Shown: positions 5,286 to 64,000 of the stretch, piece by piece
Position numbering within the stretch: the first letter of the stretch is position 1
Layout: each line of letters starts with the position of its first letter
Source: Megaleporinus macrocephalus
Lineage: Eukaryota > Chordata > Actinopteri > Characiformes > Anostomidae
DNA length: 64,000 nucleotides
NCBI GenBank assembly: GCA_021613375.1
Contig: CM038703.1
Coordinates: forward strand, 24,106,194 to 24,170,193
Reading direction: 5' to 3'
Notes under the pieces: model-generated
Databases searched by the model: none
What the model saw: the letters and a program-made list of their open reading frames with translations, nothing else
What the model was told of the DNA's origin: nothing
Translations under genes and position numbers: made by a program

Positions 5286-6289
5286 CCTTTTTTCTCGTCA
5301 TTAGGGACACTTTTAATCCATTTCATGAAACCTTTTTCTTTTTCCCAGTCCTTGCAATACCACCTCCCGCATTTCCCCATTTACCTGGCATATTAGCCAA
5401 CGGCTGCTGTTTTCTCTTCACATTGTGTGTCTGTGTTTCTTTCTCTCTCTATCGCTGGCTCGCTCTCTCTCCGCTCTCCTTTTCACGCTGTCCTTTTTCT
5501 CTTTGTCTCTCGCTCCCTCTCTCCGTTTCACACTATCCACCTTTATGTCGTTGTGTTCTCTTGGTTCTTAGTGTCGATTTGTACACGTTTGCCCGCCGTG
5601 TTGACGTAACATCCAAAGCAACACCCACTTTTTTTTTCGGCGTCCGCGATAATTTTTAAAAGTCGCCTCTATAATAATACTGCGGTACTTCACAGGATTT
5701 ACATGATGCATAGTCTTATCAGTTTGGCTGCCAAATATGATCTCACGGCTTTAACACGCGCGTACTTTGTTGTTCTGCCGTGCCACCCTGTGGGTTTAAT
5801 GAACAATATAATAATATAAGGAAATATAAGGAATAAATATCCACATTTCGTCTTCTCATTTTAGACCGTTAGTGAGTCGGGGCAGATCCTAGCGCCTGGG
5901 GCGTCCAGCAGAGTAGGCTGGCCACCCTCCGGTCAGACCTGTACCCGTTCAAAAATTTCACTCGCAGTTTTAAGCGAGGATACGGGCGTCACCCCGCATC
6001 GTTATTTTCCTTACTCATCAGTTTAAGGCATAACCAAGTCAGCTCAGCTGCACCGACCTCAAACACTAAGCCAGCCTGCTCGGTGACGGTGAAGAAGCAA
6101 ATACACAGAATCTTATCATTTGCGTTATATTACTTATTATGATTGCCTAAATGCACATTAAAAAATAAGTCGTGCACTTGAAATGTCAATCTGCTATTAC
6201 TTTTGAACTGTAACGATATGTTCTCTCACGTTGTACTTTTTGACTGCAGTGCATTGTGGGATTGACAAACGTCATCCCTGCGACCACTC
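5286..6289. other. Pyrimidine-rich and unique non-coding DNA
   Basis: About 5400-5550 is a CT-rich low-complexity tract whose open frame is compositional. From 5700 on, no gene or repeat family is recognised. A TGCATTGTGGGA word at 6250-6261 resembles the core of a ZNF143-type promoter element and lies just upstream of the short frame at 6293. Confidence 0.35.
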
Positions 6290-6780: not shown

Positions 6781-9700
6781 TTCTTTGGATGAGCTGATTC
6801 GCCGCCGCGGTGCTGCTAAGAGGTAAAAAAAAAACACAACTTTAAAAATGCAGAAAATGTTAAACAAAGTCGTCAGTTCGTTAGTACCACCAGCGATGTA
6901 TTCTCTACATATTTTAGCGTTAACCGCTGCTTTAAACTAGAGCAGACGGAGTATATCGCCGCCTTGAAGTGTTTTGCTTGTCGACCCGCCTCCGTCTTTA
7001 GCACTGGTTGGTCAAGGCGTATAGGCCTGGTAGTGTCCTGTGCTGTGTTTGGCGGTCTGTGCAACGTCCTACTCTGTGATTGGTTCATTCTGCAGTCTAA
7101 CACGCGTGGCTAAACTAGCCTAGATTAGCTTAGCATAGCCGAGTAGCATTACAGATTTAGTCAGAGGTATAAAATTAACCGAGAGTTAATGTTTCAGCCA
7201 GAGCCATGGATAAAATGCAGTTAATTTCGAATTAATCATTTCTGATTACATCTGAATTTCTCCTAAGGAGGTTTAAAGTTTGCTTGTCACTTGATCAAAC
7301 TCAGATTGGGAAAAGGGACAGCTGATTATCCAACAAACACAAATCTGCTTTATCAATTGCTTAATAATGTTTAGTTTAATTTTTAACTCTTCTGTCACAG
7401 CTAAGAAGGTTATTGATCATTTATTAATCAGCTTGAGCTCAATACCCGCAGTGTTCATAACAAGGTTCTGAACCAGGTTAGCAGAAAGGCAATTACGTTG
7501 GCCTGTATAAAAACCTTTTTTAAATAAATTGAATAATTGAAACTAAGGAGACATTTTTTAAGGCTGCTGTCTCAAGTCAGTATTAAATCTTTTGTCCAAA
7601 CTTTGTATTGTTTGAAATAATGTAGATTTGTTAGTTTTTTACTCAGCAGTTTTTACTTGCTGTGTTTCTGCTAAGGTTAGTAAGGGTGCTGGAAAAGGCA
7701 TCTGAAAGATCTGTGGACACACATTTCCAGAAAGCTGCTCTGGGACAATAAGTTACATTAGTTATGATAAGGTATTAAGTCTGCTCTGTTCAACACACCT
7801 ACTTTGTTGGTCCTCCTTGTAGATGTAAAGTTAGAGACAGTAGCTCATGTGTTGCTGCACAGTTTGTGTCATTCTCTAGTCCCTCTTCAGTGGTGTCCTG
7901 CTGGATATTTTTGGTTGGTATACTATTCTTAGTCCAGCATTGACACGGAGATATACCTAATAATGGGCAGTGTGTACATGTATTATCTCATACATAGGGT
8001 TTTTTACTTTACAATATTGTGTGAAACGGATAAAAGAGTTGGTGAGCTATGATGTTTTCATGGAGATGTTTACATTTACAAGTACATGATTTTAGTATAT
8101 AATTGTTATTGTGTTTCTGTTGTTATATATTGTATTATAATTTATTATTTTGAGGTTTAGGTGTGATGGACATTTTATAGAAAGTTGTCACGTCATGCTT
8201 TTCTAAACATATTATAGGCTCTTCAATGATCATCCGCAGTGCAAGTGCATTCTGTCTGTACCAACTTATGAAACTTCAGCAAAAAAACTAAATATTGCTA
8301 TGCTTAGCATGTATAAAGAAAATGTCTTCAAACATTGTTAAAATTAATTTTGCCATATTTTCCAGCCCTAGTTTTATTGTTTCTTTTGCAGGCCGATATT
8401 CGGGAGAGGAGCAGGCACAGTGGGCAGAGGGGCAGGTTTGGCAGGCAGAGGGTCAGGTATGGTGGGAAGGACGTTTGATGCCAGACAGAAGATTGGCACC
8501 AGTGACGTGAGACAGAGACTAGGAGGGGCTGGAGGTAAACCCCTGTTTTCCTCCAAAAATTATACAATATATTGATATTGAAGTATATATATATATATAT
8601 AATTATTTTTTTTTTATTGGTGAAAACTTTTATAGCTAATTCTTTACTCATCTTTCCTTTGGTCTAATGCAGGAATTTATGTCAGATCTAGGCCTTCACT
8701 ACAAAATATTTTACCAGCGATTTGCCCCTTCTGACAAAGCAGATTACCAGGTCAAGAGCTCAATAGGAAGCTATTGAAGATACAGATGATCTGGTAGAGG
8801 GAAAACAGTTTGATCTTTAGCCTTCATATCATGCTCAAAACTGATCTGAGGCATTCTGATATTTTCAGACAAACGATAAAACACTGTTTGCTGTTGCTTT
8901 TGGCTTTTATGCTAAATTATACAGCACATAGGCGAGTAGATGTAAGAACCTGAAGCAGGAACATTTCTGTCTCACACAAACACTCATTTGCCCTCTTCTT
9001 CCCAGTGTTCCAGGTGAAAGATGCACGAGAGCGTTTGGGGCAGAAGGACGCACGTTTCCGTATAAGGGGTAGAGGGGCCACTGTAAACTCAGTACAGGAT
9101 GCCAGACAGACCATAAACTCCCGCAAACAGCAGCAGCAACAACAGCAAGAACCCTCAACAGCCAGCAGCCAGCACACACCTATACCCCACATCCACATCC
9201 ATAACATCACCCCAGTCAGCACCACCCCCAGGGCCATCAATCAGGGACTTAACTCCAGAGTAGGTGTGGCCATCCAGCCCGGAGGTGGGCTCACGAAAGT
9301 GGTGGATGCACGGGATAGACTGAGCTTAAAGAGGAGTATCTCATCACCCAGCCAGGGACCATCAGCTCCACTCAAGATCACCAAAACCATCCAGGTAAGG
9401 CAGAGCATATGAGTATTTCACAAAGTAGAGGGTCTGTCTGCTTAAAAAATGTAACTTTTTTTTTACCATACAGTCATGATTAACAACAGCGGTTAACAAC
9501 TTTTTCTATTAATCTAGAGATACTTGTGCTTGCACATGAATGTGCGACTTCTAGACCAACAGCCAATCACGTCAAATACTGGTGACATAGACCCACTGGC
9601 CAATTAATTAGAAACACCACTTGCATTTACACTTATTGTCTGTTTTATCAGCTCCACTTACCATATAAGAGTACTTTGTGCTTCAACAATTACAGACTGT

Positions 9701-22100: not shown

Positions 22101-25100
22101 GCTTGCAGAGTGAGTGATACTACATTTAACACACTACTGAACAGCTTTATACACACATCTCTAATATAGTGCTGAATACATAAACATAAACATGACATTA
22201 GATAAAACACCTTTGCTTTTTACCTTTTTTATACATTGTTCACCTCAACCAATTCTCAAACCCTTCTTTGTAGAGTGGATCTATGAATACAAACAATCGT
22301 TTGTTAAGCCAGAGATACTACAGGAGGCTGTGGATGAGTTCATGAACCAGTATGACAAGAGGAAAGAGAAGGTAGGGTTATGTTGGATGTTGCAAAGATA
22401 CAGGTGCATCGCAATAAATTAGAATATCATCAAAGTTAATTTATTTCAGTTATTCAATTCAAAAAGTGAAACTCAGATGTTTTATAGATTCATGGCAAAC
22501 AAAATGATATATTCCAAGTATTTATTTTGTTTAATGTTGATGATCATGGCTTACAGCCAATGAAAACCCAAAAGTCATTATCACAAAAAAATAAAATATA
22601 TAAGACCAATTAAAAAGAAGATTTTTAATACAGAAATGTTGGCCTACAGAAAAGTTTGTACAGTATATGCACTCAATACTTTGTCGGGGCTCCTTTTGCA
22701 TGAATTACTGCATCAGTGCAGCATGGCACAGAGGCAGTCAGCCTGGGGCACTGCTGCGATGTTATGGAAGCCCAGGTTGCTTTGATAGTGGCCTTCCACT
22801 TGTCTGAATTGCTGGGTCTAGTGTCTCTCATCTTCCTCGACAGTATCCCATAGATTCTCTATGGGGTTTAGTTCAGGCAAGTTTGATGGCTAGTCAAGCA
22901 CAGTGATGCTGTGGTTATTAAACCAGGTATTGGTACTTTTGGCAGTGTGGACAGGTACCAAGTCCTGCTGGAAACTGTCCCAGACTCTGGGACCTTGATT
23001 TCCAAATGAAATGCAAAATTTACTTTCATCTGAAAACAAGACTTTAAACCACTGAGCAAGATTTCAGTCCTTTTTTCTTTGGCCCAGGTAAGACGCTTCT
23101 GCCGTGGTCTCTGAGTCATGAGTGGCTTGACACAAGGAATGCGACAGTTGTATCCCATGTGCTGGACATATAAGTGTGGTAGCTCTTGAAGCACTGACTC
23201 GAGCAGCAGTCCACCCCTTGTGAGTCTCCCCCCAATTTTTGAATGGCCTTTTCTTGACAATCCTTTCAAGGCTGCAGTTATCCCTGTTCCTTGTGCACCT
23301 TTTTCTACCACACTTTTTCCTTCCACTCAACTTTCAATTTATATGCTTGAATACAGCATGTGTGAACAGCCAGCTTCTTTAGCAATGACCTTTTGTGGCT
23401 TGCCCTCCTTGTGGAGTACGTCAATGACTGCCTTCTGGACATCTGTCAAGTTAGCAGTCCTGCCCATGATTATGTAGCCTACTGAACAAGGCTAAGGGTC
23501 CATTTTAAAGGCTTAGGAAACCTTTGCAGGTGTTTTGTGTTGATTATTCTAATTTGAGTTAGAATCTGAGTTATTGACTTTTGTTTTTTCAGTGACTGTA
23601 AGCCATGTTCATCAACATTAAAAGAAATAAACGCTTGAAATAGATCATGCATTTCATGAATCTATATAATGAGTTTCACTTTTTGAATCGAAATACTGAA
23701 ATAAATTAACTAAATTAAATTTTTGCATCTGTAAATGGCTTTAAATGACTTAGTTTATCTTCTACTCTAAAAGAAAGCTCAGTTAGAGTTGTGAGCTGGG
23801 TGCAGAGAAGTTCATGACAGATGGAGTGAAATTTTCTATTTTCCTTTCAATTTTTCTAAATACAAAGTAGCCTGCATAGAAATGCTACTGTGTATCTGTT
23901 TTGTCAGAAGCAAAGGATATATTAACTGTGTACTAACTTTGTCTCTCAGGAGGCAGAACGTCTGCAAAAGGAGGCAGAGCAACAGCAGGAGGACGAGGAG
24001 GGTTGGGTTAAGGTGACAAAAGGCAGCAAAGGTGTTAAAGCCCGCCCGCATAGTGAGGTGGCTAATGAGAGAGCACTTCAGAGGGAAGACAAAAAGAAAA
24101 AGAGAAAGGAGCTGCTGAACTTCTACACATGGCAGCGACGAGACACGCAAAGAGAAAGTGAGTTTTACTAACATAGGGTTGAAGTTTTCAGACACTTGAC
24201 TAACACTTTGTTGTTAGCCACTAATTGTCCTTTTCATCTTTACATGAGGCTTGCAGAACATTGTTGAAAAATCAGCCCAACCTAATGAGAAACTATAACT
24301 AAAATACCCTACATTTGAAAATAGAAAACATAATGAAACTTGTCTTGGGTTTACAAAAACAATAGCAATAGTTTTAATTTCTAATTGATGTTGTTACACC
24401 TGTAGAGGGCAGTGCTGAGTAGTGTGTACTTATGAACTTAATTGGATGTATCGGAAGAGTTGCAAGATAACACAAATTCCAGTTTTGGCACTTTAGACTT
24501 GTAGTTGCATACAATAAACAAAAAAGATAATAAATTGTTAACTGTAATTGTTTATATGGCAGTTTTGTTAGTTACAGTGTCATAATTCTAAATGTCCTAT
24601 TAATGTATAAAATTATTTTGATGCTTAACTGTAGCAGTGTGTTGAGTGGTTCTAAAGGTTTTAGGGGTGGCAGCACAAAAAGCAGTCAAATGTACGGTTT
24701 ACTGGTTTAATGTTCCTCGCTGTTGCCTTTCTATCACTGTAAATTTATGGTAATGGACAAGTACAATGGGAAAGATGCTCTGAGCTAATACTCTATGACA
24801 ACAAATTAGAAAGGATTGAAATAATGTCAGAAATGCTAATTCTACAATTCATATAAAACAAAATGTCAACAGTTACTGAGAAAGGAAGCATTTGTGCAGG
24901 TTTTTATTGTTAGATGTTTGGTGTTTGTATTATAATATTGTGCTGATATAAAACCAGAATTATGGTGGTAAAGATGTTCATGTGACCTCGAAATGCTGCT
25001 CCTCCAGTCTCATGTGCATAAAACAGTGTTCACTGTTTGCAAATGTGTTTTTCCCTCACAGATATTGCACAACTGAGGAAGAAGTTTGAGGAGGATAAAC

Positions 25101-39419: not shown

Positions 39420-39987
39420 ATCCGTTCATAAAATCAAAACATATTGTCTGTAGTTCTCCATCCTCATAATATTTAGTCATATATGTTTTCTTGATGTAGT
39501 GTACCTTTTTCTTCCATATTTAATCATAGTTAATCTGATTAATTTTTCTAACTGCTTTGTTTGGTATGGCTAAAGAATAGGCTGTATAAATACATCTAGA
39601 TATCGATTCCATCTTAGTTAGAAAAACTCTACCAAGCAAACTAATGTCTTTTAACAACCACAAATTGAGTGTGGATTGACATTTCTTGATAACCTTCCAT
39701 ACATTCTGTTTTTCACTCTCATCTGGATCTTTACAAATATGTATACCCAAATATTTTATAGAGTTTTTGATTGGGATATTATGAACCTCATTCAAATGAG
39801 TGGGATGGAGTGCCATAATTTCACATTTGTTCAAATTCAATTTAAGACCTGAGGCTTTTGAAAAAATTCTTATAATTTGAAGAATTTTTGAAGTCTCATT
39901 CGCATCTTTCATAAAAATAGTGGTGTCATCCGCAAATTGGGTGATTATGAATGGTCTTCCTAACATATTAAGAGGAGCATCTGACAG
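39420..39987 (-). pseudogene. L1-type reverse transcriptase fragment
   Basis: A 158-residue minus frame (39996-39520) has the RT active-site box QFADDTTIFM, then SGLKLNLNKCEI, IKYLGIHI and SLLGRVFLTKM, in the order seen in L1-group ORF2 proteins. Upstream domains are missing, so it is 5' truncated. Its 5' break at about 39987 abuts the start of repeat A copy 2. AT-rich sequence at 39180-39420 may be its 3' region. The first codons of the frame come from the neighbouring repeat. Confidence 0.75.
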
Positions 39988-40830
39988 CAACAGCATGTAA
40001 GTTGTTTTGCTCTGCTAATGCATCTATTTTGTAAAATGAAGTATGAAGCAAGTTAGTTTATTGTAAAATGTTAAAATGTATTTGGTGTTCAGTCCCTTGC
40101 TGGCATCACAAAGTGATCGCTTTCTGTATACCAGGTGCCACTGGCAAACAGCACTAAGTGTTGTGAGATGCAAGTGCCCCATTCAGTCATTAAAAGTTAA
40201 CAATTGCAGGTGCCTTTTTACTGAGACATGCATACCAATATATGCCATTTCCTGACAGCCGAGTGGCTGCTTCCTTTTTGACAGATGACAGAGTGACTTG
40301 AGACCCTCTTTTAAGTTTCATTTGGCTCAGTTCATAATGTGCCAAATTTTTTTTGTTATTTTAGAGGTGTAATTTAATAGTTATACATACAATTGTTTTT
40401 ATAGTCAGTGATCATCAGCTTAAAAAAACTATGACAGGTTATCCAGCAGTGCTTATGACCTTAAGGGCTGTACACTGCCAATATAGAATCATGCCACACA
40501 GCTGAACTATGAGACGTCAACTCCCCATTTTACCTCTGTGACCTGTGCACGGACTGTTTCTTTGGACTTACCACCTGATCAGCCCTGTTGCATCAACCTA
40601 AATAGGTGAGTAACATTTAGTTCAGTAAATTAATGTAAATAATCTGATTAATTTAATGCATGTTGGAATGTTGAATTGTATTTTGTATTTCATAGGTTAC
40701 ACAGCCTAATATATCCAGCCAACATATTGGGGCCACAAAATACTACATGGATGCATTCTGAGTTGTTCTCTGATATTCTACATAGAAGATTTGTGACTTT
40801 TACATGTAATCACAGCACTAGTTTTAAACT
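39988..40830. repeat. Interspersed repeat family A, copy 2
   Basis: Aligns to copy 1: CAGCATGTAAGT (39990 with 35709), TTCAGTCCCTTGC (40089 with 35839), CTGATCAGCCCTGTTGCATC (40576 with 35891), TTGTATTTCATAGGTTACAC (40683 with 35998) and TTGGGGCCACAAAATACT (40726 with 36043). About 400 bases in the middle (40105-40520) are specific to this copy. Confidence 0.75.
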
Positions 40831-43087: not shown

Positions 43088-43952
43088 CTGATCCACTGTC
43101 AGTTCAATTTATTACTACCTGATACTAGCCCAGGGTATGAGACTTTATGAAGTCAACCAAATATGACCATAATACCACACATGAATAGTTTAAAATCTGT
43201 CAAGTCACTACACCACAACCTTAAAATGCAAATAATTCCAAACTTCAAGTGAACACAGCACACTCAAATATGTTTGACCAAATCTCAGTTCCAGTTGTAG
43301 CTACTGTTAGATCGTAAAATACAATAATAAAAATAACTAATTTAGCCCAAGTAATGTTTCTGACTAATGGCTTAGATTTTAGCCACACAATATTAAATAA
43401 CCAAAGCAGCAGATCACATGAAACCACTGAGCAGCTTAACACACTGAGCATTAGGATTTCTTGTGGTAAAATAAGAAAACAAACAAAAAAAATAAAACGG
43501 GAGAAAACCCGGGAGAAAGGGCTGTGGCCCTTTATGTAAACACAAAACCAAAAGAAAAAACATTACATTAATTTCATGAAACACAAATGAACGAATTCTG
43601 AGTTAATGAATCACAAGGGGAAACATACCACATTCATCAGGTTGACTAACTTCACTCATGGACAGAATAGCAGCTTGTCTGTTAAGAACACTAAAAGGCA
43701 AAATACAATTAGGAACAATAAAATTTCTTGTTCAGTGCATACCAAAGATGCATTCTACCACTGCATCATCCACAGACCTGGCCCAATACGCAAACTGCAG
43801 GGGGTGATCTGGTCTATGAGGGTCATGCATGTGCTTAGTGGGATGTAAACTCCAATGACCAGTTTATGTTTATGAACACAGATTCCAGATCAGGACTGCA
43901 TGTTTTCATGAACACAGTGACACCTGTACACCAGCCGCGGTTGATGACACAG
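43086..43952. other. Intergenic DNA, no gene seen
   Basis: Only short AT-rich frames. No recognised protein or repeat. Confidence 0.3.
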
Positions 43953-44170
43953 CATCTCCTCACCTTCTTACAACACACAGACAGCATCTCCTCACCTTCT
44001 TGCAACACACAGACAGTATCTCCTCACCTTCTTATAACACCCAGCGTCTCCCCACCTTTTTACAACACACACAGCATCTCCTCACCTTCTTACAACACAC
44101 ACAGCATCTCCTCACCTTCTTACTTCACACAGCATCTCCTCACCTTCTCACAACACATATCATCTCCTGA
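43953..44170. repeat. Minisatellite, unit CAGCATCTCCTCACCTTCTT plus spacer
   Basis: Seven or eight head-to-tail units of about 25-33 bases: CAGCATCTCCTCACCTTCTT and a variable ACAACACACA spacer. The same unit forms the array at 57440-57815. Both arrays are followed by TATTTGAGG and preceded by TACACCA-type sequence, so the flanks are shared too. Confidence 0.9.
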
Positions 44171-44419
44171 CCTTTATATTTGAGGCATTGCTTTTATTAT
44201 TATTTTTGTTGATTTTTTTATTTGCTTGTGTCTGTATTTGTTTGTTTGTGTGTGTGTGTATGTATTTGTGTGTGTCTGTGTTTGTATTAGTGCTATTGAT
44301 GATCATGGTTCATCATGTTTCCTCCAGGAGGGTCTTCTCTCTTTCTTCTCTCCTCCACCTCTTCCTCTTCCTCTATAACCTTCTCTCTTTATCCTGTCTT
44401 TGTATCTGTCTGTGCTTTC

Positions 44420-44559: not shown

Positions 44560-47500
44560 CTATCTGTGGCTGATTGAAGGAGGCCTGCACTGCTCATTGG
44601 CCTTAACTGGTTCCTTTTCCTGCTTGTATTTAATTTTCCTTCCTCCTCCACTCATTTTTCTTCTCCTTTTTCTTTTTGGCCCTGTTCCACATCCATCCAC
44701 TAGCAGGTCATTGATTTTAGCTGGAGGACAAAATGAGAAGAATCTCTAAAGACAGTATCTGGAACTCAGAGTAACTTAGCAGAGCTTTTCAGTTGAGTCT
44801 ATCATTTCAGTGGATTCAACTGAGGAACATCTTCAACGCTGATATTGAGGCTGAAACTGCTACAGAGTGTTCCGTCTGGTTGTGTGCTGTAATCCAGCTT
44901 TGTAATTTGTGATCAGCAGTGTTTTATTGTCATTACTCACCCACAGATTGGTTCTTGGTGGCGTCGGCCATGTCAGTGATGTTGGTCTCTTCACTGAATA
45001 CATCATTCCTATCTTCAGCAGCTTTTATGCTGAGCACATCTTTTACTGCAATACGAATAATAATCTGTTCAAAGTCTTTTAACTGAAAATCATATTTTAT
45101 ATATTTGTATATGTACTGATGATGGAATATTATCTAAAGTGTTAATACTGAAGTATTAGTATTCTTTCTTCTTGAACGATGCTATAGAAGAACGACTTTG
45201 GGTTCCCTAAAGAACATCTTAATGGAGGCTACTTTAAAGAAAGACGTTTAAAGGTGCTTGTATACCAATGATAGCGTTTCTCTAGAGTTGTATATCCAAC
45301 CCAAGAACCTGTAAGAACCTTTATGTTTAAGAAGAGCGCATGTTTATGTGTTTCAACTACGAAGCCTAAGATTTGGTTCCTCTACTCACTCTGAAACGGC
45401 TCAGTAACTGCCACCAGCTCCTCCAGGATGAGCTGTTCTTCAACAGGAGCAGTCTGCTTTCCAGCGTGCTCGACTGTCTGCAGCTCATCACCTGCCGTCA
45501 CATGAAGAAACATCAACAGCTGTCCAAATCCATCACTGTAGTTCAATCTGACCATCATGTTTGTGTTACTGACCCAAAATCTGGATGTCTTAGTTTCACT
45601 TTGTAAAACAAGTCTGAGTTCTTTAATAGCTGCAGATTGATTTTCAACACTTATGGTGAATCTTTTGCTGTTATTACTTATATTAGACCAAAGCAGCATA
45701 TTCATGATTAATAACATGATTGTTAATAGCTTATAAATGACTAATAACAGCAGCTGTTTCATAAGAATTGTTCTATCTGGTAATGATTCGCTTTTCTTAC
45801 TCAGAGGAGGAATGCTGCTCTGCTCAGTAACCAGGTTGGTCAGCTGTAGCTGGGTGGTGTTTTCAGCTGCAGCGCTCGCCAACTCTCCATCTAGAGACAT
45901 CAAGCAGAATGTTTATTAATTAAGGCAGTTTATTAATAATATTAAGCAGAATTCCTGAAGAAACATCAGCAGGTCTTTAACCATTCAGAGCTATTATGAT
46001 ACTAATCATGCTACTGGTTTCTTCCCAGTTCTTTAACTAGCATCTCCAGCCTCTCCCAAATTACCTTGGTCATCGGATCCTTCTTGCTCTCTAGTTTATT
46101 TTTGGAGTATCAAATAATACATAAATGTTAATATGAAACTTTATTCCTGCTTCTGAATCTTATTATTATGTCTCTGTTTATTGACTCACCGGGTGTCTCA
46201 GCAGCTTCACGCTGAACTCACGCTGAAGGACTGATCATCAGGGCCTCCACCCCACCCATCACCAGCCAGCTCTCCTTCCCAACTGTGTCTACTGCTACAC
46301 CCTCAGTTACATCACTGTGCCATCCAGATGTACCAGCATTGAGATAGGATGGGACACCCACTTTACATAAAGACTCAGTCATAGACTGCCTCAGCCAGAA
46401 AATGCCTCAGTTATACACTGCCTCTATCTGTGCAGCTTCTAAAGCTGTGCTATCCAGATTTCAAACAAAGGCTCCTTTCTTTGGTATTTAGTTTAAACTG
46501 TAAATACTGTTTGACCAGAGGAGGATGGGTCTCCCCTTGTGAGTCTGGTTCCTCCCAAGATTTCCTCCTCCAGTCTGAGGGAGTTTTTCCTTGCCACTGT
46601 TGCCTCTGGCTTGTTCACTGGGGGATATATGTTGTAAATGTCTGTTTCCAAAACTCTGTAAAGCTGCTTTGAGACAACATCGATGTAAAAAGCGCTATAT
46701 AAATAAACTTGACTTGACTTGACCAAGGAGCTCATCCAGTTCCAACAACTGTGTGGTCGGTATCTCGTCCACTGGATTCACATTAATAAACACTGTCAGT
46801 CGTCCGACTGTGTCACTGTCATACTTGATAGATGTGCACTGATCATTTCTATCACTTACTGAACAATTGGTCAATGTCCAGGTGGTGTTTGGAGCCACTA
46901 TCTGAACCTGTGACCCGTGTCTGTAGCTCTGCTCCTGATTCAGACCCTGAAAGGATCAGCAGATGTCCAGTAACGTTATGGTCAGTTCTTATGGTCCTCG
47001 TCAGCCCGTAAAGTCAGAAAATGATGACATCGCCAAATCGTAACTAGAGCCTGATGGAATTTGGGTAGTCGTCATTACATTATTCATCATTTATTACATG
47101 AACAGTTCTGGACCGTGTGACTGCTGGACCAGGACTGTCCAAATACAGGACGATTGTCCTCATCATGTCCTCATCACGTGTTTACTGACCCAATATCAGG
47201 TCCTCTCAGTCTTGCTCAGCACATCTGAACAGTGTTAATGTTGTTGAATTCAGAGTTAATGTGATGCTAATAATGCTTGTGGTTTCTCCTACTCACCCAG
47301 AGGTGGGCTGCTGGATGTTCCAGTAGCATCCAGTGTTACCATCAGCTCCCTGATGATGTCTTCCCTTGTCACTAGAGCAGTCAATCTCATTCTCTGCTTT
47401 TATAAAATTAAATATTCTCAGTTTTCCAGTTTGTTCATTCTAAAAGTATCAATTTGTGTGCTTTACCCACCCAGACGCTGATCACTGATTGCAACTGTGT

Positions 47501-48343
47501 TCTCCAGCAGCAGCTCAGGAACTTCCCTGACCATGTCCTCACCGAACTGCTGTTCTTCTGCTTTAATTTTAATGTCAGAATTAATAATATCAGCATTTGT
47601 CGTGATAATTTAGAGCTCACTTGATTCTGAACATGCTACTGTTTTCTCCTACTCACCCAGAGGTGAGCTGGTGGATGCTGCAGCATCATCCATTGTTACC
47701 ATCAGGTCCCTGATGGTGTCGTCCTTTGTAGGTACAGAGGTCAGCGTCTTATTCTCTGCTTTTATAGAATTAAACATTCTCAGTTTTCCAGTTTGTTCTT
47801 TCTAAAAGTATCAATTTGTGTGCTTTACTCACCCAGACTCTGATCACTGGCTGCAACTGTGTCCTCCAGCAGCAGCTCAGGAACCTCTCTAACAATGTCC
47901 TCACTGAACTGATGTCCTTCTTCTTTCATTTTGATGTCAGACTTATTAATATTAATATTAACATGTCCTGATAATTTGGAGCCTACATGATTCTGAACAT
48001 GCTGGTGGTTTCTCCTACTCACCCAGAGGTGAGCTGGTGGATGCTGCAGCATGTATGTCAGCCTCTGAAGTGACCATAGTGACCTCTATTCCAACAACAA
48101 ATAACATTTTCCATTAAAACTTGTTATTTTGTATGAATTCATTTAACAAGATTTGAGCTCATATTAATTTCTCATAATGAGTTCTCAGCCTGTAATAACT
48201 GATTCAGTTTATTTTATAAACTATTCAGTAATTACAATCACATCTCCTCCTCTACTCACTCAGAAGCTGCTCAGCACCTGCTGTAATCTCCTCCAGAACC
48301 ACTTTCTTCAGGTCTTTGGAGATCTCCTCCTGTGGTGGAGGTG
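44560..48343 (-). CDS. Unrecognised multi-exon gene with repeated phase-1 exons
   Basis: Minus-strand exons (5' to 3'): 48343-48260, 48085-48023, 47922-47833, 47758-47657, 47560-47471, 47371-47297, an exon from about 46950 down to the LINE at 46724, 45890-45390, 45045-44941 and terminal 44720-44560 (stop 44562-44560). Eight internal exons (84, 63, 90, 102, 90, 75, 501, 105 nt) are divisible by three, start after AG, end before GT and read open as phase 1-1. Exon pairs repeat: EDIVREVPELLLEDTVAASD with EDMVREVPELLLENTVAISD, and TIRDLMVTMDDAAAS with IIRELMVTLDATGTS. The 501-nt exon has a hydrophobic run (MKQLLLLVIYKLLTIMLLIM) and then YSDGFGQLLMFLHV, resembling YDSDTVGRLTVFINV in the interrupted exon. 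The tail is basic (PKRKRRRK). This could be a type II membrane protein. No start exon was placed; a frame shift occurs in GAA-rich sequence upstream. Some acceptors lack pyrimidine tracts. Gene or young pseudogene. Confidence 0.45.
46233..46724 (+). mobile_element. LINE 3' tail inserted in the minus-strand gene
   Basis: Near-identical to the tail at 53050-53850: ATCACCAGCCAGCTCTC, ACTGTTTGACCAGAGGAGG, GAGTTTTTCCTTGCCACTG, CTGTAAAGCTGC and AAAAGCGCTATATAAATAAA with a TTGAC-repeat end. It is 5' truncated. It lies between a coding segment ending LLELDELLG (46728 side) and one encoding AAETP before a donor at about 46195, so it probably split one exon. Confidence 0.85.
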
Positions 48344-48760
48344 CTGGTGTCTCAGCCGATCAGGTGATCAGTCACCTCCTTCTCCACATTTGTGGCTTCC
48401 TGGCCCGTATGAATTTCTGCTTCTCCGTCTTTGATGTTTCCATCCTTTCTCCACTTTCCTCTTTTCTTCTTCTTCTTCTTCTTCTTCTTCTTCTTTTTCT
48501 TCTTCTGTGTTCTCAGTCTCTCCTCTGTGCCTGTGTCAGAGGCCTCTGCAGCACCAAAACCAGAGGCAGCTCATCTTTACTGTTGTTCTGTTTGGAGCTT
48601 CAACACAGACTGATAGGAAACGCTCTCTCCATTTCACAAGTCTTCTCCTTCCACACACAGTATTCCTTATTGATTATGACTTCACAGCAGAATTTCACAC
48701 AGCATTCTATTACGTCTTTGTGGCTAAGTGAACTACAGAAAAAGGGCTGCAGGTAGTAAA
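48344..48760 (-). other. GAA/AAG-rich stretch upstream of the unrecognised gene
   Basis: A (TTC)n run at 48469-48504 reads on the minus strand as Lys- or Glu-rich protein, followed by KDGNIKDGEAEIHTGQEA and VEKEVTDHLI. A stop then lies one base out of frame with the exon starting at 48343. This could be the broken or misassembled first exon. Confidence 0.3.
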
Positions 48761-49077: not shown

Positions 49078-49800
49078 GGCTAAGATATACATGCTGGTGG
49101 GCTATAATATTGGTGGTGGTTTGTTATGTAATCGAGGACGGTGGGCTATGATATTGCGGAGATTGGGCTTTGATATCAGGGGTGGTGGGCTTTGATATTC
49201 AGAGTAGTGTGCCATGATATCATGTGCAGTGGGCTATGACCTCAGGTGTGATGGGCTATGATATCTGGGGAGGCGAGCTATGATATCTGGGGCGGTGGGC
49301 TATGTGTGCAGTTGGCTTTGGTTTCAGGGTGGTGGACTATGATATCATGGCTGTGGTCTATGATATATAGTGGGCTGAGATTTTGGGTTTGTGGGTATGA
49401 TATCAGGGGTGGAGAGCTATGATATTAGAGGGCAGTGGGCTATGATATCAGGGGCGGTGGGCTATCATATCAGGGTACAGTGGGCTACGATATCGGGGCA
49501 GTGGGCTACGATATCAGGGGGTGGTGAACTATGATATCAGAGGGCAGTGGGCTATGATATCAGGGGCAGTGGGCTATGATATCAGAGGGCAGTGGGCTAT
49601 GATATACAGGCTGGTGGGCTATGATATCAGTGGTGGTCTATGATATCAGGGTTGGTGTAATATGATATCAGGGGCGGTGAGCTATGATATCATTGGGAGT
49701 AGGCTATGATGTCAGGGGTGGTGGGCCATGATATTGTGGGTGGTGGGCTATAATATACAGGCTGGTGGGCTATGATATTGGCGGCAGTGGGTTATGTGAG
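49078..49800. repeat. Minisatellite, unit GGGCTATGATATCAGGGGCGGT
   Basis: About 30 diverged head-to-tail units of some 20-24 bases around GGGCTATGATATCAGG. The same unit returns at 51783-51975 after the L1 remnant. Confidence 0.9.
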
Positions 49801-51782: not shown

Positions 51783-51975
51783 ATCTGGTGGGCTATGATA
51801 TCGAGAGCGATGTGCTACGATTTAAGGGGTGGTGGGCTTTGATGTAAGGACCACCCCAAGGTCTATGATATAAGGGGTGGTGCGATATGATATCATGCAT
51901 GGTGGGTTATGATATCGAGGGCGATGTGCTACGATTTAAGAGGTGATGGGCTATGATATCAGGGACATTGGATTA
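51783..51975. repeat. Minisatellite, second part
   Basis: Same TGGGCTATGATATC unit as at 49078-49800. A CA run lies nearby at about 51709. Confidence 0.85.
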
Positions 51976-52249: not shown

Positions 52250-53852
52250 GGCTGCTCGGATTAAATGTTCAGACTCAGATCTGACATTTATTCAACACAT
52301 AGGTAATATTACAAGGACAGCGTTTCTTCACCTGCGAAACATATCAAAGTTAAGAAATGCGTTACCTATATTTGATGCTGAAAAGTTAGTGCACGCCTTT
52401 ATAATCTCAAGGCTGGATTATTGTAATGCATTATTGTCAGGATGCTCCAGCAGGAACCTGAATTAATTGCAGTTAGTTCAGAACGCTGCAGCTACAGCAC
52501 TAACTAAAACCAGGAAATATGATCACATAATTTCCTATTATGAACCGCCACGCTTACTTAGATCATAGGATGCTGGTTTTCCAATAGTTCCAAAAATTCT
52601 GAAGACTTCAATGGGGTGAAGAGCTTTTTCCTACAAAGCCCCCAAATTGTGGAATAATCCCCCAGTTAATGTCCGGGACTCTGACACAGTCTCAACTTTT
52701 AAGTCTAGACTAAAAACATACTTGTTTAGTGTAGCTTTTGGTAATTAATCTTCTTTTTAGATAAAGGCAGGAGATCCGGGGGTTCATGGACACATAGGTT
52801 TATGGTAAACCGAGATGTTGGTGCTGTTATCCCACCACTTCACGCGATCACACAGGTTTGTTGATGGTGGAGTGGGGGGATCCCAGTGTCTCAGGGTGCT
52901 CTCATGTCCATGTTACCTTCTGGTTCTCTCCTTTTAATTTAGGCTGTTATAGTTAGATCTGCCGGAGTCACCAGCCGAACTCAAAAATTCTGAATATTTA
53001 TATTCTCTACAGTCATACTCCTGAGCCCAACTAACTTAAAAGCTGTTGGATGACTGACCATCAGGGCCCTTCTCCCTACCCATCACCAGCCAGCTCTCTT
53101 GTCCATTTGTGTCAACTGCTACACCCAGATGCACCAGCACTGAGATAGGATGGGACTGTTTCAGCTCATGCCTACTTTTATATAAAAAATCAGCCTCAGT
53201 CAGAGACTATCTCTACCTGTGCAGCTTCTAAAGCTTTGCTATCCAGATTTCAAACAGAGACTCTTTTCTTTGGAGTTTAGTTTATTAAACTGTAAATACT
53301 GTTTGACCAGAGGAGGATGGGTCTCCCCTTGAGAATCTGGTTCCTCCCAAGGTTTCTTCCTCCAGTCTGAGGGAGTTTTTCCTTGCCACTGTTGCCTCTG
53401 GCTTGCTCACTATTATATTATTTATTCTAATATCGCTGCTATAGACCATATCACAAAGTCACTTTAAACAGATATGCAAAAGTTTCTACATATGTCCTCC
53501 TGTATATCTTATGTATATATGTTGTGTATGTTTTGTATAGTCCTTTATATGTTTCAGTTATAACTATATGTATATTGTACAGCTTATTTTTACTTTAATA
53601 TTGTCTATTTATTGTATGTTTGCACTGTTTTCCATATATAATGCTGCCCTGCTGTAGAGTTGTATCTGGGCCTCATCCCAAGCATTTCAAAGCATGTTAT
53701 GTCCTGACATGATGTGCAAATGACAAATAAACTTGAAATTTGAAACTTGAAACACTGGGGGATAAATGTTGTAACTGTCTGTTTTCAAAACTCTGTAAAG
53801 CTGCATTGAGACAACATCGTTGCAAAAAGCGCTATATAAATAAACTTGACCT
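52250..53852 (+). mobile_element. LINE copy (end of RT plus 3' tail)
   Basis: The first part encodes a decayed RT C-terminal region: DLTFIQHIGNITRTAFLHLR, KLVHAFIISRLDYCNALLSG, then stops and frame changes. The 3' region continues with CCAGCCAGCTCTC, GAGTTTTTCCTTGCCACTG and GCGCTATATAAATAAA. The coding motifs suit an L2/CR1-like fish LINE; exact clade not settled. Another element is inserted in its tail. Confidence 0.8.
53412..53753 (+). mobile_element. Nested insertion inside the LINE tail
   Basis: The tail reads GGCTTGCTCACT, then about 340 foreign bases, then CACTGGGGGATA, whereas the uninterrupted tail at 46.6 kb reads GGCTTGTTCACTGGGGGATA. CACT is repeated on both sides, like a short target duplication. 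The insert ends GACAAATAAACTTGAAATTTG, like a LINE or SINE 3' end. Confidence 0.7.
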
Positions 53853-53872
53853 GACTTGACATTTCAGGCTGT

Positions 53873-53988: not shown

Positions 53989-55467
<1,479 letters not shown>

Positions 55468-57362: not shown

Positions 57363-57439
57363 CACACAAACACACACGCACACACAAACATACTGTAACC
57401 CACAAACACCCACATTTACATATCTACGGCATGTATACA

Positions 57440-57815
57440 CCACAGCATCTCCTCACTTTCTTACTACACACCACAGAATCTCCTCACCTTCCTACTAAAC
57501 ACACACAGCACCTCCTCACCTTTTTACTAAACACACACACAGCATCTCTTCACCTTCTTACTACACACACACACACACAGCATCTCCTCACCTTCTTACT
57601 ACACACACAAAGCATCTCCTAACCTTCTTACCACACACACACACAGCATCTCCTCACCTTCTTACTACACACACACAGCATCTCCTAACCTTCTTACTAC
57701 ACACACACGCAGCATCTCCTCACCTTCTTACTAAACACAGCATTTCCTCACCTTTTTACTACACACAGCATCTCCTCACCTTCTTACTACACACTCAGCA
57801 TCTCCACACCTTCTT
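57440..57815. repeat. Minisatellite, same unit as 43.95-44.17 kb
   Basis: About a dozen units of CAGCATCTCCTCACCTTCTT with TACTACACACACA spacers of varying length. The right flank TTATTTGAGGTA matches the first array's TATATTTGAGGCA. Confidence 0.92.
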
Positions 57816-57869
57816 ATTTGAGGTACTTCTTTGTATGCAAAATGAACTGAAGAGTAATTATGACTTCTT

Positions 57870-61515: not shown

Positions 61516-61574
61516 ATGGCACTGAACCGCAATCATTCTCAGCAAGGAGGTGTCCTCGTTGATAACAACGAGAG
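61516..61574 (+). CDS. wbp2nl: WBP2/WBP2NL-like protein, first coding exon (partial)
   Basis: ATG at 61516 gives MALNRNHSQQGGVLVDNNE and two bases (AG) of the next codon, followed by a good donor GTGAGG at 61575. WBP2 family proteins start MALN-NHS-GGG-V-NN-ES, with the first intron in the final Ser codon, exactly the phase seen here. Family members carry a GRAM/PH-like domain and PPxY motifs; WBP2NL is the sperm postacrosomal sheath protein. The GRAM-domain exon was not found before the window ends, so the gene should continue beyond it. Choice of WBP2NL over WBP2 rests on human WBP2NL lying at 22q13.2 with POLDIP3 and RRP7A. Short exon, so moderate confidence. Confidence 0.6.

Positions 61575-64000
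<2,426 letters not shown>

What the first reader, a model, noticed from the sequence alone, without database searches (positions are those of the whole stretch)
44560..48343. Unrecognised gene built from phase 1-1 exons
Seen: eight internal minus-strand exons, each divisible by three, each with AG before and GT after, each open in the one frame that keeps phase 1, and a terminal exon that continues that phase to a stop. This is unlikely by chance. The protein would have acidic helical repeats, a hydrophobic segment, an ectodomain-like part present twice and a basic tail. I match it to no family. Inference: a lineage-specific membrane protein, or a recently broken one.
Basis: seen in the sequence. 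Interest (0 to 1): 0.75.

Follow-up and report, generated by a model that had tools for sequence, protein, structure and literature searches.

The report
Decaying exon-array orphan gene in fish
In a characin-like fish genome, a row of short, similarly built exons looks like the remains of a fast-changing gene with no relative found, made by repeated copying of small exon units and probably no longer able to make its full protein.

Summary
The exon-like structure is there. Exons 2-6 are a 366-bp tandem duplication that includes introns; exons 1, 3, 5 and 9 are older copies of one another. The spliced product would be acidic (pI 4.1 without the last exon) with a basic tail, and has no hydrophobic segment: that lies in an in-frame 309-nt intron.

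Decay is visible. The nearby ATG does not connect to exon 1; exon 4 lacks the acceptor of its twin exon 6; a SINE-like repeat cuts one exon-like block; another has lost its donor. Recent copies show no purifying selection (3 synonymous, 19 nonsynonymous). A strict splice-site chain test did not single the locus out.

Two protein searches found no relative; a control from the same window found 189 proteins. Best reading: a decaying, lineage-specific orphan gene grown by phase 1-1 exon duplication. Transcription is untested. Modest interest.

The parts
48344..48574 (-). Putative first-exon region: ATG at 48574 gives 12 codons (MSCLWFWCCRGL) before a stop; an AAG microsatellite (48456-48506) follows; no single frame links the ATG to exon 1
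48260..48343 (-). Exon 1 (type I), 84 nt, phase 1-1; ordinary acceptor; 3' part 77% like exon 9
48023..48085 (-). Exon 2 (type II), 63 nt
47833..47919 (-). Exon 3 (type I), 87 nt; very poor acceptor
47657..47755 (-). Exon 4 (type II), 99 nt as drawn; lacks the AG used as acceptor by its twin exon 6, so needs an upstream AG
47471..47557 (-). Exon 5 (type I), 87 nt, twin of exon 3
47297..47371 (-). Exon 6 (type II), 75 nt, twin of exon 4
47247..48052 (-). Tandem duplication, period about 366 bp, 85% identical, introns included (units 48052-47607 and 47686-47247)
46860..46946 (-). Exon 7, 87 nt, good acceptor
46724..46771 (-). Remnant of a further phase-1 type-I exon (DEIPTTQLLELDELLG in frame), running into the SINE-like repeat
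46229..46723 (.). SINE-like repeat (the name is recalled), also matching 53052-53411 and 53753-53860
46190..46216 (-). Possible 3' remainder of the split exon, before GTGAGTCA
46025..46090 (-). Remnant of a type-II exon, 66 nt, open in phase 1; no GT after it (the following sequence resembles the introns after exons 2, 4 and 6)
45801..45890 (-). Exon 8, 90 nt, good acceptor, weak donor score
45492..45800 (-). Intron 8, 309 nt, open in frame with exons 8 and 9; holds the hydrophobic segment
45390..45491 (-). Exon 9 (type I), 102 nt
44941..45045 (-). Exon 10, 105 nt
44560..44720 (-). Coding part of the terminal exon, basic tail KINDLLVDGCGTGPKRKRRRKMSGGGRKIKYKQEKEP..., stop TAG; strong acceptor
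44193..44222 (-). Two AATAAA signals (first bases 44222 and 44198)

Best explanation
A degenerating copy of a lineage-specific, fast-evolving fish gene. The gene grew by repeated tandem duplication of small exon-plus-intron cassettes. Because every cassette exon is phase 1 on both sides, copies can be added, skipped or lost without shifting the frame; that explains both the growth of the array and how it could tolerate a lost acceptor, a lost donor and a repeat insertion. While intact it most likely made a soluble, acidic, partly helical repeat protein with a short, strongly basic C-terminal tail, possibly tethered to a membrane by a cysteine-rich N-terminus. The acidic repeats would serve as a flexible binding surface and the basic tail as a nucleic-acid, membrane or nuclear-import handle. 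In this assembly the start no longer connects to the array, so the full protein is probably not made. Shown: exon-like anatomy, paralogy among exons, lesions, composition. Inferred: former expression, helicity, protein behaviour, loss of function.
For: Ten phase 1-1 blocks plus a terminal block. Phase-1 excess at donors. Good acceptors at exons 7, 8 and the terminal exon and AATAAA downstream. Old similarity of exon 1 to 9 and of 3 to 9, and of intron segments. Recent 366-bp duplication. Lesions: ATG frame closed after 12 codons and three stops in the exon-1 frame between there and exon 1; no AG in exon 4 where exon 6 has its acceptor; SINE-like repeat in an exon-like block; donor missing. No purifying selection: 3 synonymous and 19 nonsynonymous changes. 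Acidic body and basic tail.
Against: No transcript data. The strict splice-site chain test was negative. Some simulated sequence reached the observed donor count (maximum 13 in 2000). A true first exon may lie elsewhere, or the frame breaks around the AAG microsatellite may be assembly errors. The direction of the exon 4/exon 6 acceptor difference is not known: exon 6 may have gained its AG. The recent copies have no indel in 192 compared exon bases and 2 in introns, too few to test; one of the two falls inside exon 4 as I draw it.
Confidence: 0.5

Rival explanations
1. A living gene. Its first coding exon lies upstream, or the breaks in the first-exon region are assembly errors, and the exon turnover and high nonsynonymous rate reflect diversifying selection, as in an immune or reproductive protein.
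For: One phase fits all drawn exons; strong terminal acceptor and polyadenylation signals; more nonsynonymous than synonymous change, not significant (P 0.19).
Against: Several splice sites lost or poor; no start found in the region read; no relative among the scored candidates, although other characiforms are in that database.
Confidence: 0.27
2. A detached N-terminal exon array of a larger multi-copy fish family, such as PIM-like kinases (a resemblance in N-terminal style that I recall; it comes from no call), whose catalytic exons were lost or replaced by the basic terminal exon.
For: Recalled only. The array has no catalytic domain of its own.
Against: No HRD-type kinase motif in six frames of the window; ten scattered DFG strings, none beside other kinase motifs. 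No Pfam family for the joined protein. No relative in a database rich in fish, with a query whose length admitted proteins to about 850 aa.
Confidence: 0.1
3. Never a gene: a noncoding tandem-repeat region in which duplication of a few donor-like and open segments imitates an exon array.
For: Introns diverge about as much as exons (15% against 0 of 30, 13% and 17% in three exon segments); no purifying selection; strict chain test negative.
Against: The phase-1 excess survives collapsing of tandem copies (8 of 12 groups); good acceptors and a terminal exon in the 3' half, outside the recent duplication; exons 7-10 and the terminal exon fit one phase.
Confidence: 0.13

Closest known systems
Orphan (taxonomically restricted) genes enlarged by tandem duplication of symmetric exons (general knowledge)
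   Same: Short phase 1-1 exons repeated with their introns; no relative found; fast change
   Different: Here the start is not connected and several copies have lost or poor splice sites
Fish PIM-like kinases (recalled lead)
   Same: Recalled: a cysteine/tryptophan- and lysine-rich start followed by variable acidic exons
   Different: No kinase motif or domain found in the window or the joined protein; ends in a basic tail; N-terminal similarity not tested
Modular membrane receptors built from phase 1-1 ectodomain exons (general knowledge)
   Same: Exon phase
   Different: No Pfam match for the joined protein, no hydrophobic segment and no cysteine in the acidic part of the spliced product

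Membership tests
Functional protein-coding gene | Open reading frame from a start codon through all exons | tested here: not met
   ATG at 48574 closes after 12 codons; the exon-1 frame has three stops before exon 1 and no ATG after the last. A distant first exon was not excluded
Functional protein-coding gene | Consistent splice sites and phase | tested here: inconclusive
   Phase consistent; acceptors good at 7, 8 and terminal, mixed at 9 and 10, ordinary or poor at 1-6; chain test negative
Functional protein-coding gene | Purifying selection on the protein | tested here: not met
   Within-gene copies only, 52 codons: pS 0.157/pN 0.123 for exons 3/5, 0/0.204 for 4/6 (from exon 6's acceptor); pooled 3 syn, 19 nonsyn, P(<=3) 0.19
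Functional protein-coding gene | Transcription | not testable with these tools
   No RNA data held
Membrane receptor | Transmembrane segment | tested here: not met
   Maximum 19-residue hydropathy 0.97 in the joined exons; 2.34 only with intron 8 read through
Membrane receptor | Recognisable ectodomain | tested here: not met
   No Pfam family for the joined protein; for the read-through ORF two matches, both below the curated cut-off; single-sequence model mean pLDDT 49.9, confident only around one helix
PIM-like kinase | Kinase catalytic motifs | tested here: not met
   0 HRD-type and 0 glycine-loop matches in six frames of 64 kb
PIM-like kinase | N-terminal sequence similarity to annotated members | not tested
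Taxonomically restricted orphan | No relative outside the lineage in a database that covers neighbouring lineages | tested here: inconclusive
   None of 5180 candidates at E<=1 and none of 7995 at E<=10; control 189 hits. The search needs shared 5-residue words and similar length, and sees predicted proteins only

The most novel reading that the evidence does not exclude
A living, characin-specific gene under diversifying selection, in which phase 1-1 exon cassettes are gained and lost continuously so that individuals or species carry different numbers of acidic repeats, with optional retention of the in-frame intron 8 adding a hydrophobic segment and switching the product between soluble and membrane forms.
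Probability: 0.06. Interest if true: 0.65.

Novelty: new member of a known kind. Interest (0 to 1): 0.3.

Why it matters
If it was a gene, one locus shows several stages of exon birth and death: recent and old cassette copies, a missing acceptor, a missing donor and a repeat insertion, all tolerable because of symmetric exon phase. It could serve to date exon turnover in an orphan gene. If it was never a gene, it is a useful warning about how duplicated noncoding DNA can imitate an exon array.

Tried and rejected
Strict splice-site chain scoring: at four settings the longest phase-1 chain in the region was 1, 0, 0 and 2, while other windows (227) reached up to 4 in some phase. I keep this as evidence against. 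The splice-site frequencies were typed from general knowledge, not measured in this fish.

A second gene copy near the related minisatellite at 57.4-57.8 kb: read and searched by DNA profile; matches at E<=0.5 all lie inside 45.3-48.4 kb, some of them weak and on the reverse strand.

Kinase exons in the window: none seen. Pfam, PDB and Rfam for the locus: nothing. Viral and prokaryote contigs: nothing, as expected for a fish gene. Structure of the 176-codon read-through ORF: mean pLDDT 49.9, so no fold search was made. The spliced product was not folded.

Synonymous counting on the old pairs failed in the script (exit status 1, after the recent pairs were printed). By eye, exons 1 and 9 differ in 9 of 14 codons, and all nine change the amino acid.

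Literature: five searches, seen as listings only; nothing in the titles or abstract starts bears on this locus, and one search found no paper. No paper was opened.

Full report
The window is from a fish, most likely a characiform. Two exons of rrp7a (ORFs at 22165-22422 and 23926-24171, + strand; Pfam RRP7, the first below the curated cut-off) gave 189 proteins at E<=0.001, of which 120 are listed. The named ones are fish; the best is Prochilodus magdalenae at 86%, and Acnodon, Astyanax, Brachyhypopomus and Hoplias follow closely, with one unnamed entry between. This also shows that the protein database covers fish.

Observation. On the minus strand I draw ten internal blocks with AG before, GT after and a length divisible by three, open in phase 1: 48343-48260, 48085-48023, 47919-47833, 47755-47657, 47557-47471, 47371-47297, 46946-46860, 45890-45801, 45491-45390 and 45045-44941. 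The choice among nearby AGs was mine and guided by phase. The terminal block from 44720 continues phase 1 to TAG at 44560, with AATAAA at 44222 and 44198.

Chance. In 48450-44801 there are 16 donor-like sites (GTRAG[TAG] or GTGGGT); 12 have at least 20 open codons upstream in phase 1, 9 in phase 0 and 3 in phase 2. For 199 other donors in the window the share is 27-30% per phase. Binomial P is 8.7e-5, or 2.6e-4 for three phases. After collapsing tandem copies, 8 of 12 groups are open (P 0.014 for three phases); leaving out two donors inside the SINE-like repeat, 8 of 10 (P 0.0022). Among 312 other windows the best had 9, in a stretch that holds the 57.4-57.8 kb minisatellite. Simulations reached 12 in 0 of 5000, but a run of 2000 had a maximum of 13. 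A stricter chain test that scored acceptors and donors did not separate the locus from the rest. By pyrimidine content the acceptors of exons 7, 8, 9, 10 and terminal are in the top 2%, 6%, 27%, 14% and 0.6% of AGs, those of exons 1-6 in the top 44-93%; by matrix score they are 5.5, 3.2, 4.6, 0.4 and 7.5, against -1.1 to -13.2 for exons 1-6. The 3' half is therefore gene-like on its own; the 5' half is mostly carried by duplication.

How it was built. Units 48052-47607 and 47686-47247 are 85% identical: exons 2, 4 and 6 are one type, exons 3 and 5 another, copied with their introns. Older similarity links exon 1 to exon 9 (77% over 65, E 1.7e-7), exon 3 to exon 9 (E 0.001) and exon 1 to exon 3 (E 0.066), and intron segments before and after these exons to one another. 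The DNA profile search found no further copies elsewhere in the window at E<=0.5.

Decay. The sequence aligned to exon 6's acceptor has no AG in exon 4. At 46771 a phase-1 block similar to the start of exon 9 (E 0.009) begins after CCAG and runs into the SINE-like repeat at about 46723. At 46090-46025 lies a 66-nt block open in phase 1, followed by sequence like the introns after exons 2, 4 and 6, but without a GT donor. Upstream of exon 1 the ATG at 48574 (MSCLWFWCCRGL) closes after 12 codons, and the exon-1 frame has three stops between there and exon 1. Between the recent copies I count 3 synonymous and 19 nonsynonymous changes in 52 codons; the expected synonymous share is 24%, P(<=3) 0.19. 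Substitutions are 0 of 30, 11 of 87 and 13 of 75 in the three exon segments and 38 of 248 in introns; indels are 2 events outside those segments, one of them inside exon 4 as I draw it. There is no sign of purifying selection, and no significant sign of diversifying selection.

Product. The joined exons give 345 residues: pI 4.14 and charge -38.5 without the last exon, +10.8 for the last exon. There is no Pfam match, no PDB match and no relative among 5180 candidates at E<=1 or 7995 at E<=10. The maximum hydropathy is 0.97. A structure model without an alignment gives one confident helix there and low confidence elsewhere. Retention of this intron is possible but has no support beyond the open frame.

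Reading. I favour a decaying orphan gene, with a living but rapidly changing gene second. The PIM-like lead rests on memory alone; no HRD-type kinase motif is in the window. The own genome, relatives and RNA could not be searched, so expression and wider distribution remain open.

Noticed in passing
5879-6031, - strand: U12 minor spliceosomal RNA gene (Rfam RF00007, 128 bits), a few kilobases from an ORF at 8954-9412 that I recognise from memory as POLDIP3; I recall the same neighbourhood in human.
   Followed up: partly
43947-44178 and 57437-57832: Two arrays of one 28-34-bp minisatellite (ACACAGCATCTCCTCACCTTCTTAC), one just downstream of the exon array, the other beside a retroelement-like ORF (named from memory).
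   Followed up: partly
49140-49778 and 51863-51964: 22-bp tandem repeat with GATATC.
   Followed up: no
54349-54804, + strand: Tc1-like transposase piece (Pfam HTH_Tnp_Tc3_2, 3.3e-19).
   Followed up: no
39520-40014, - strand: Reverse transcriptase fragment (RVT_1, 4e-11).
   Followed up: no
61516-61580, + strand: ATG frame MALNRNHSQQGGVLVDNNE running to GTGAGG, read by eye; possibly the first exon of a gene that leaves the window; not identified.
   Followed up: no
45383-45912, - strand: 176-codon open frame running through exon 8, intron 8 and exon 9; 0 of 300 Markov resamples hold one as long.
   Followed up: partly
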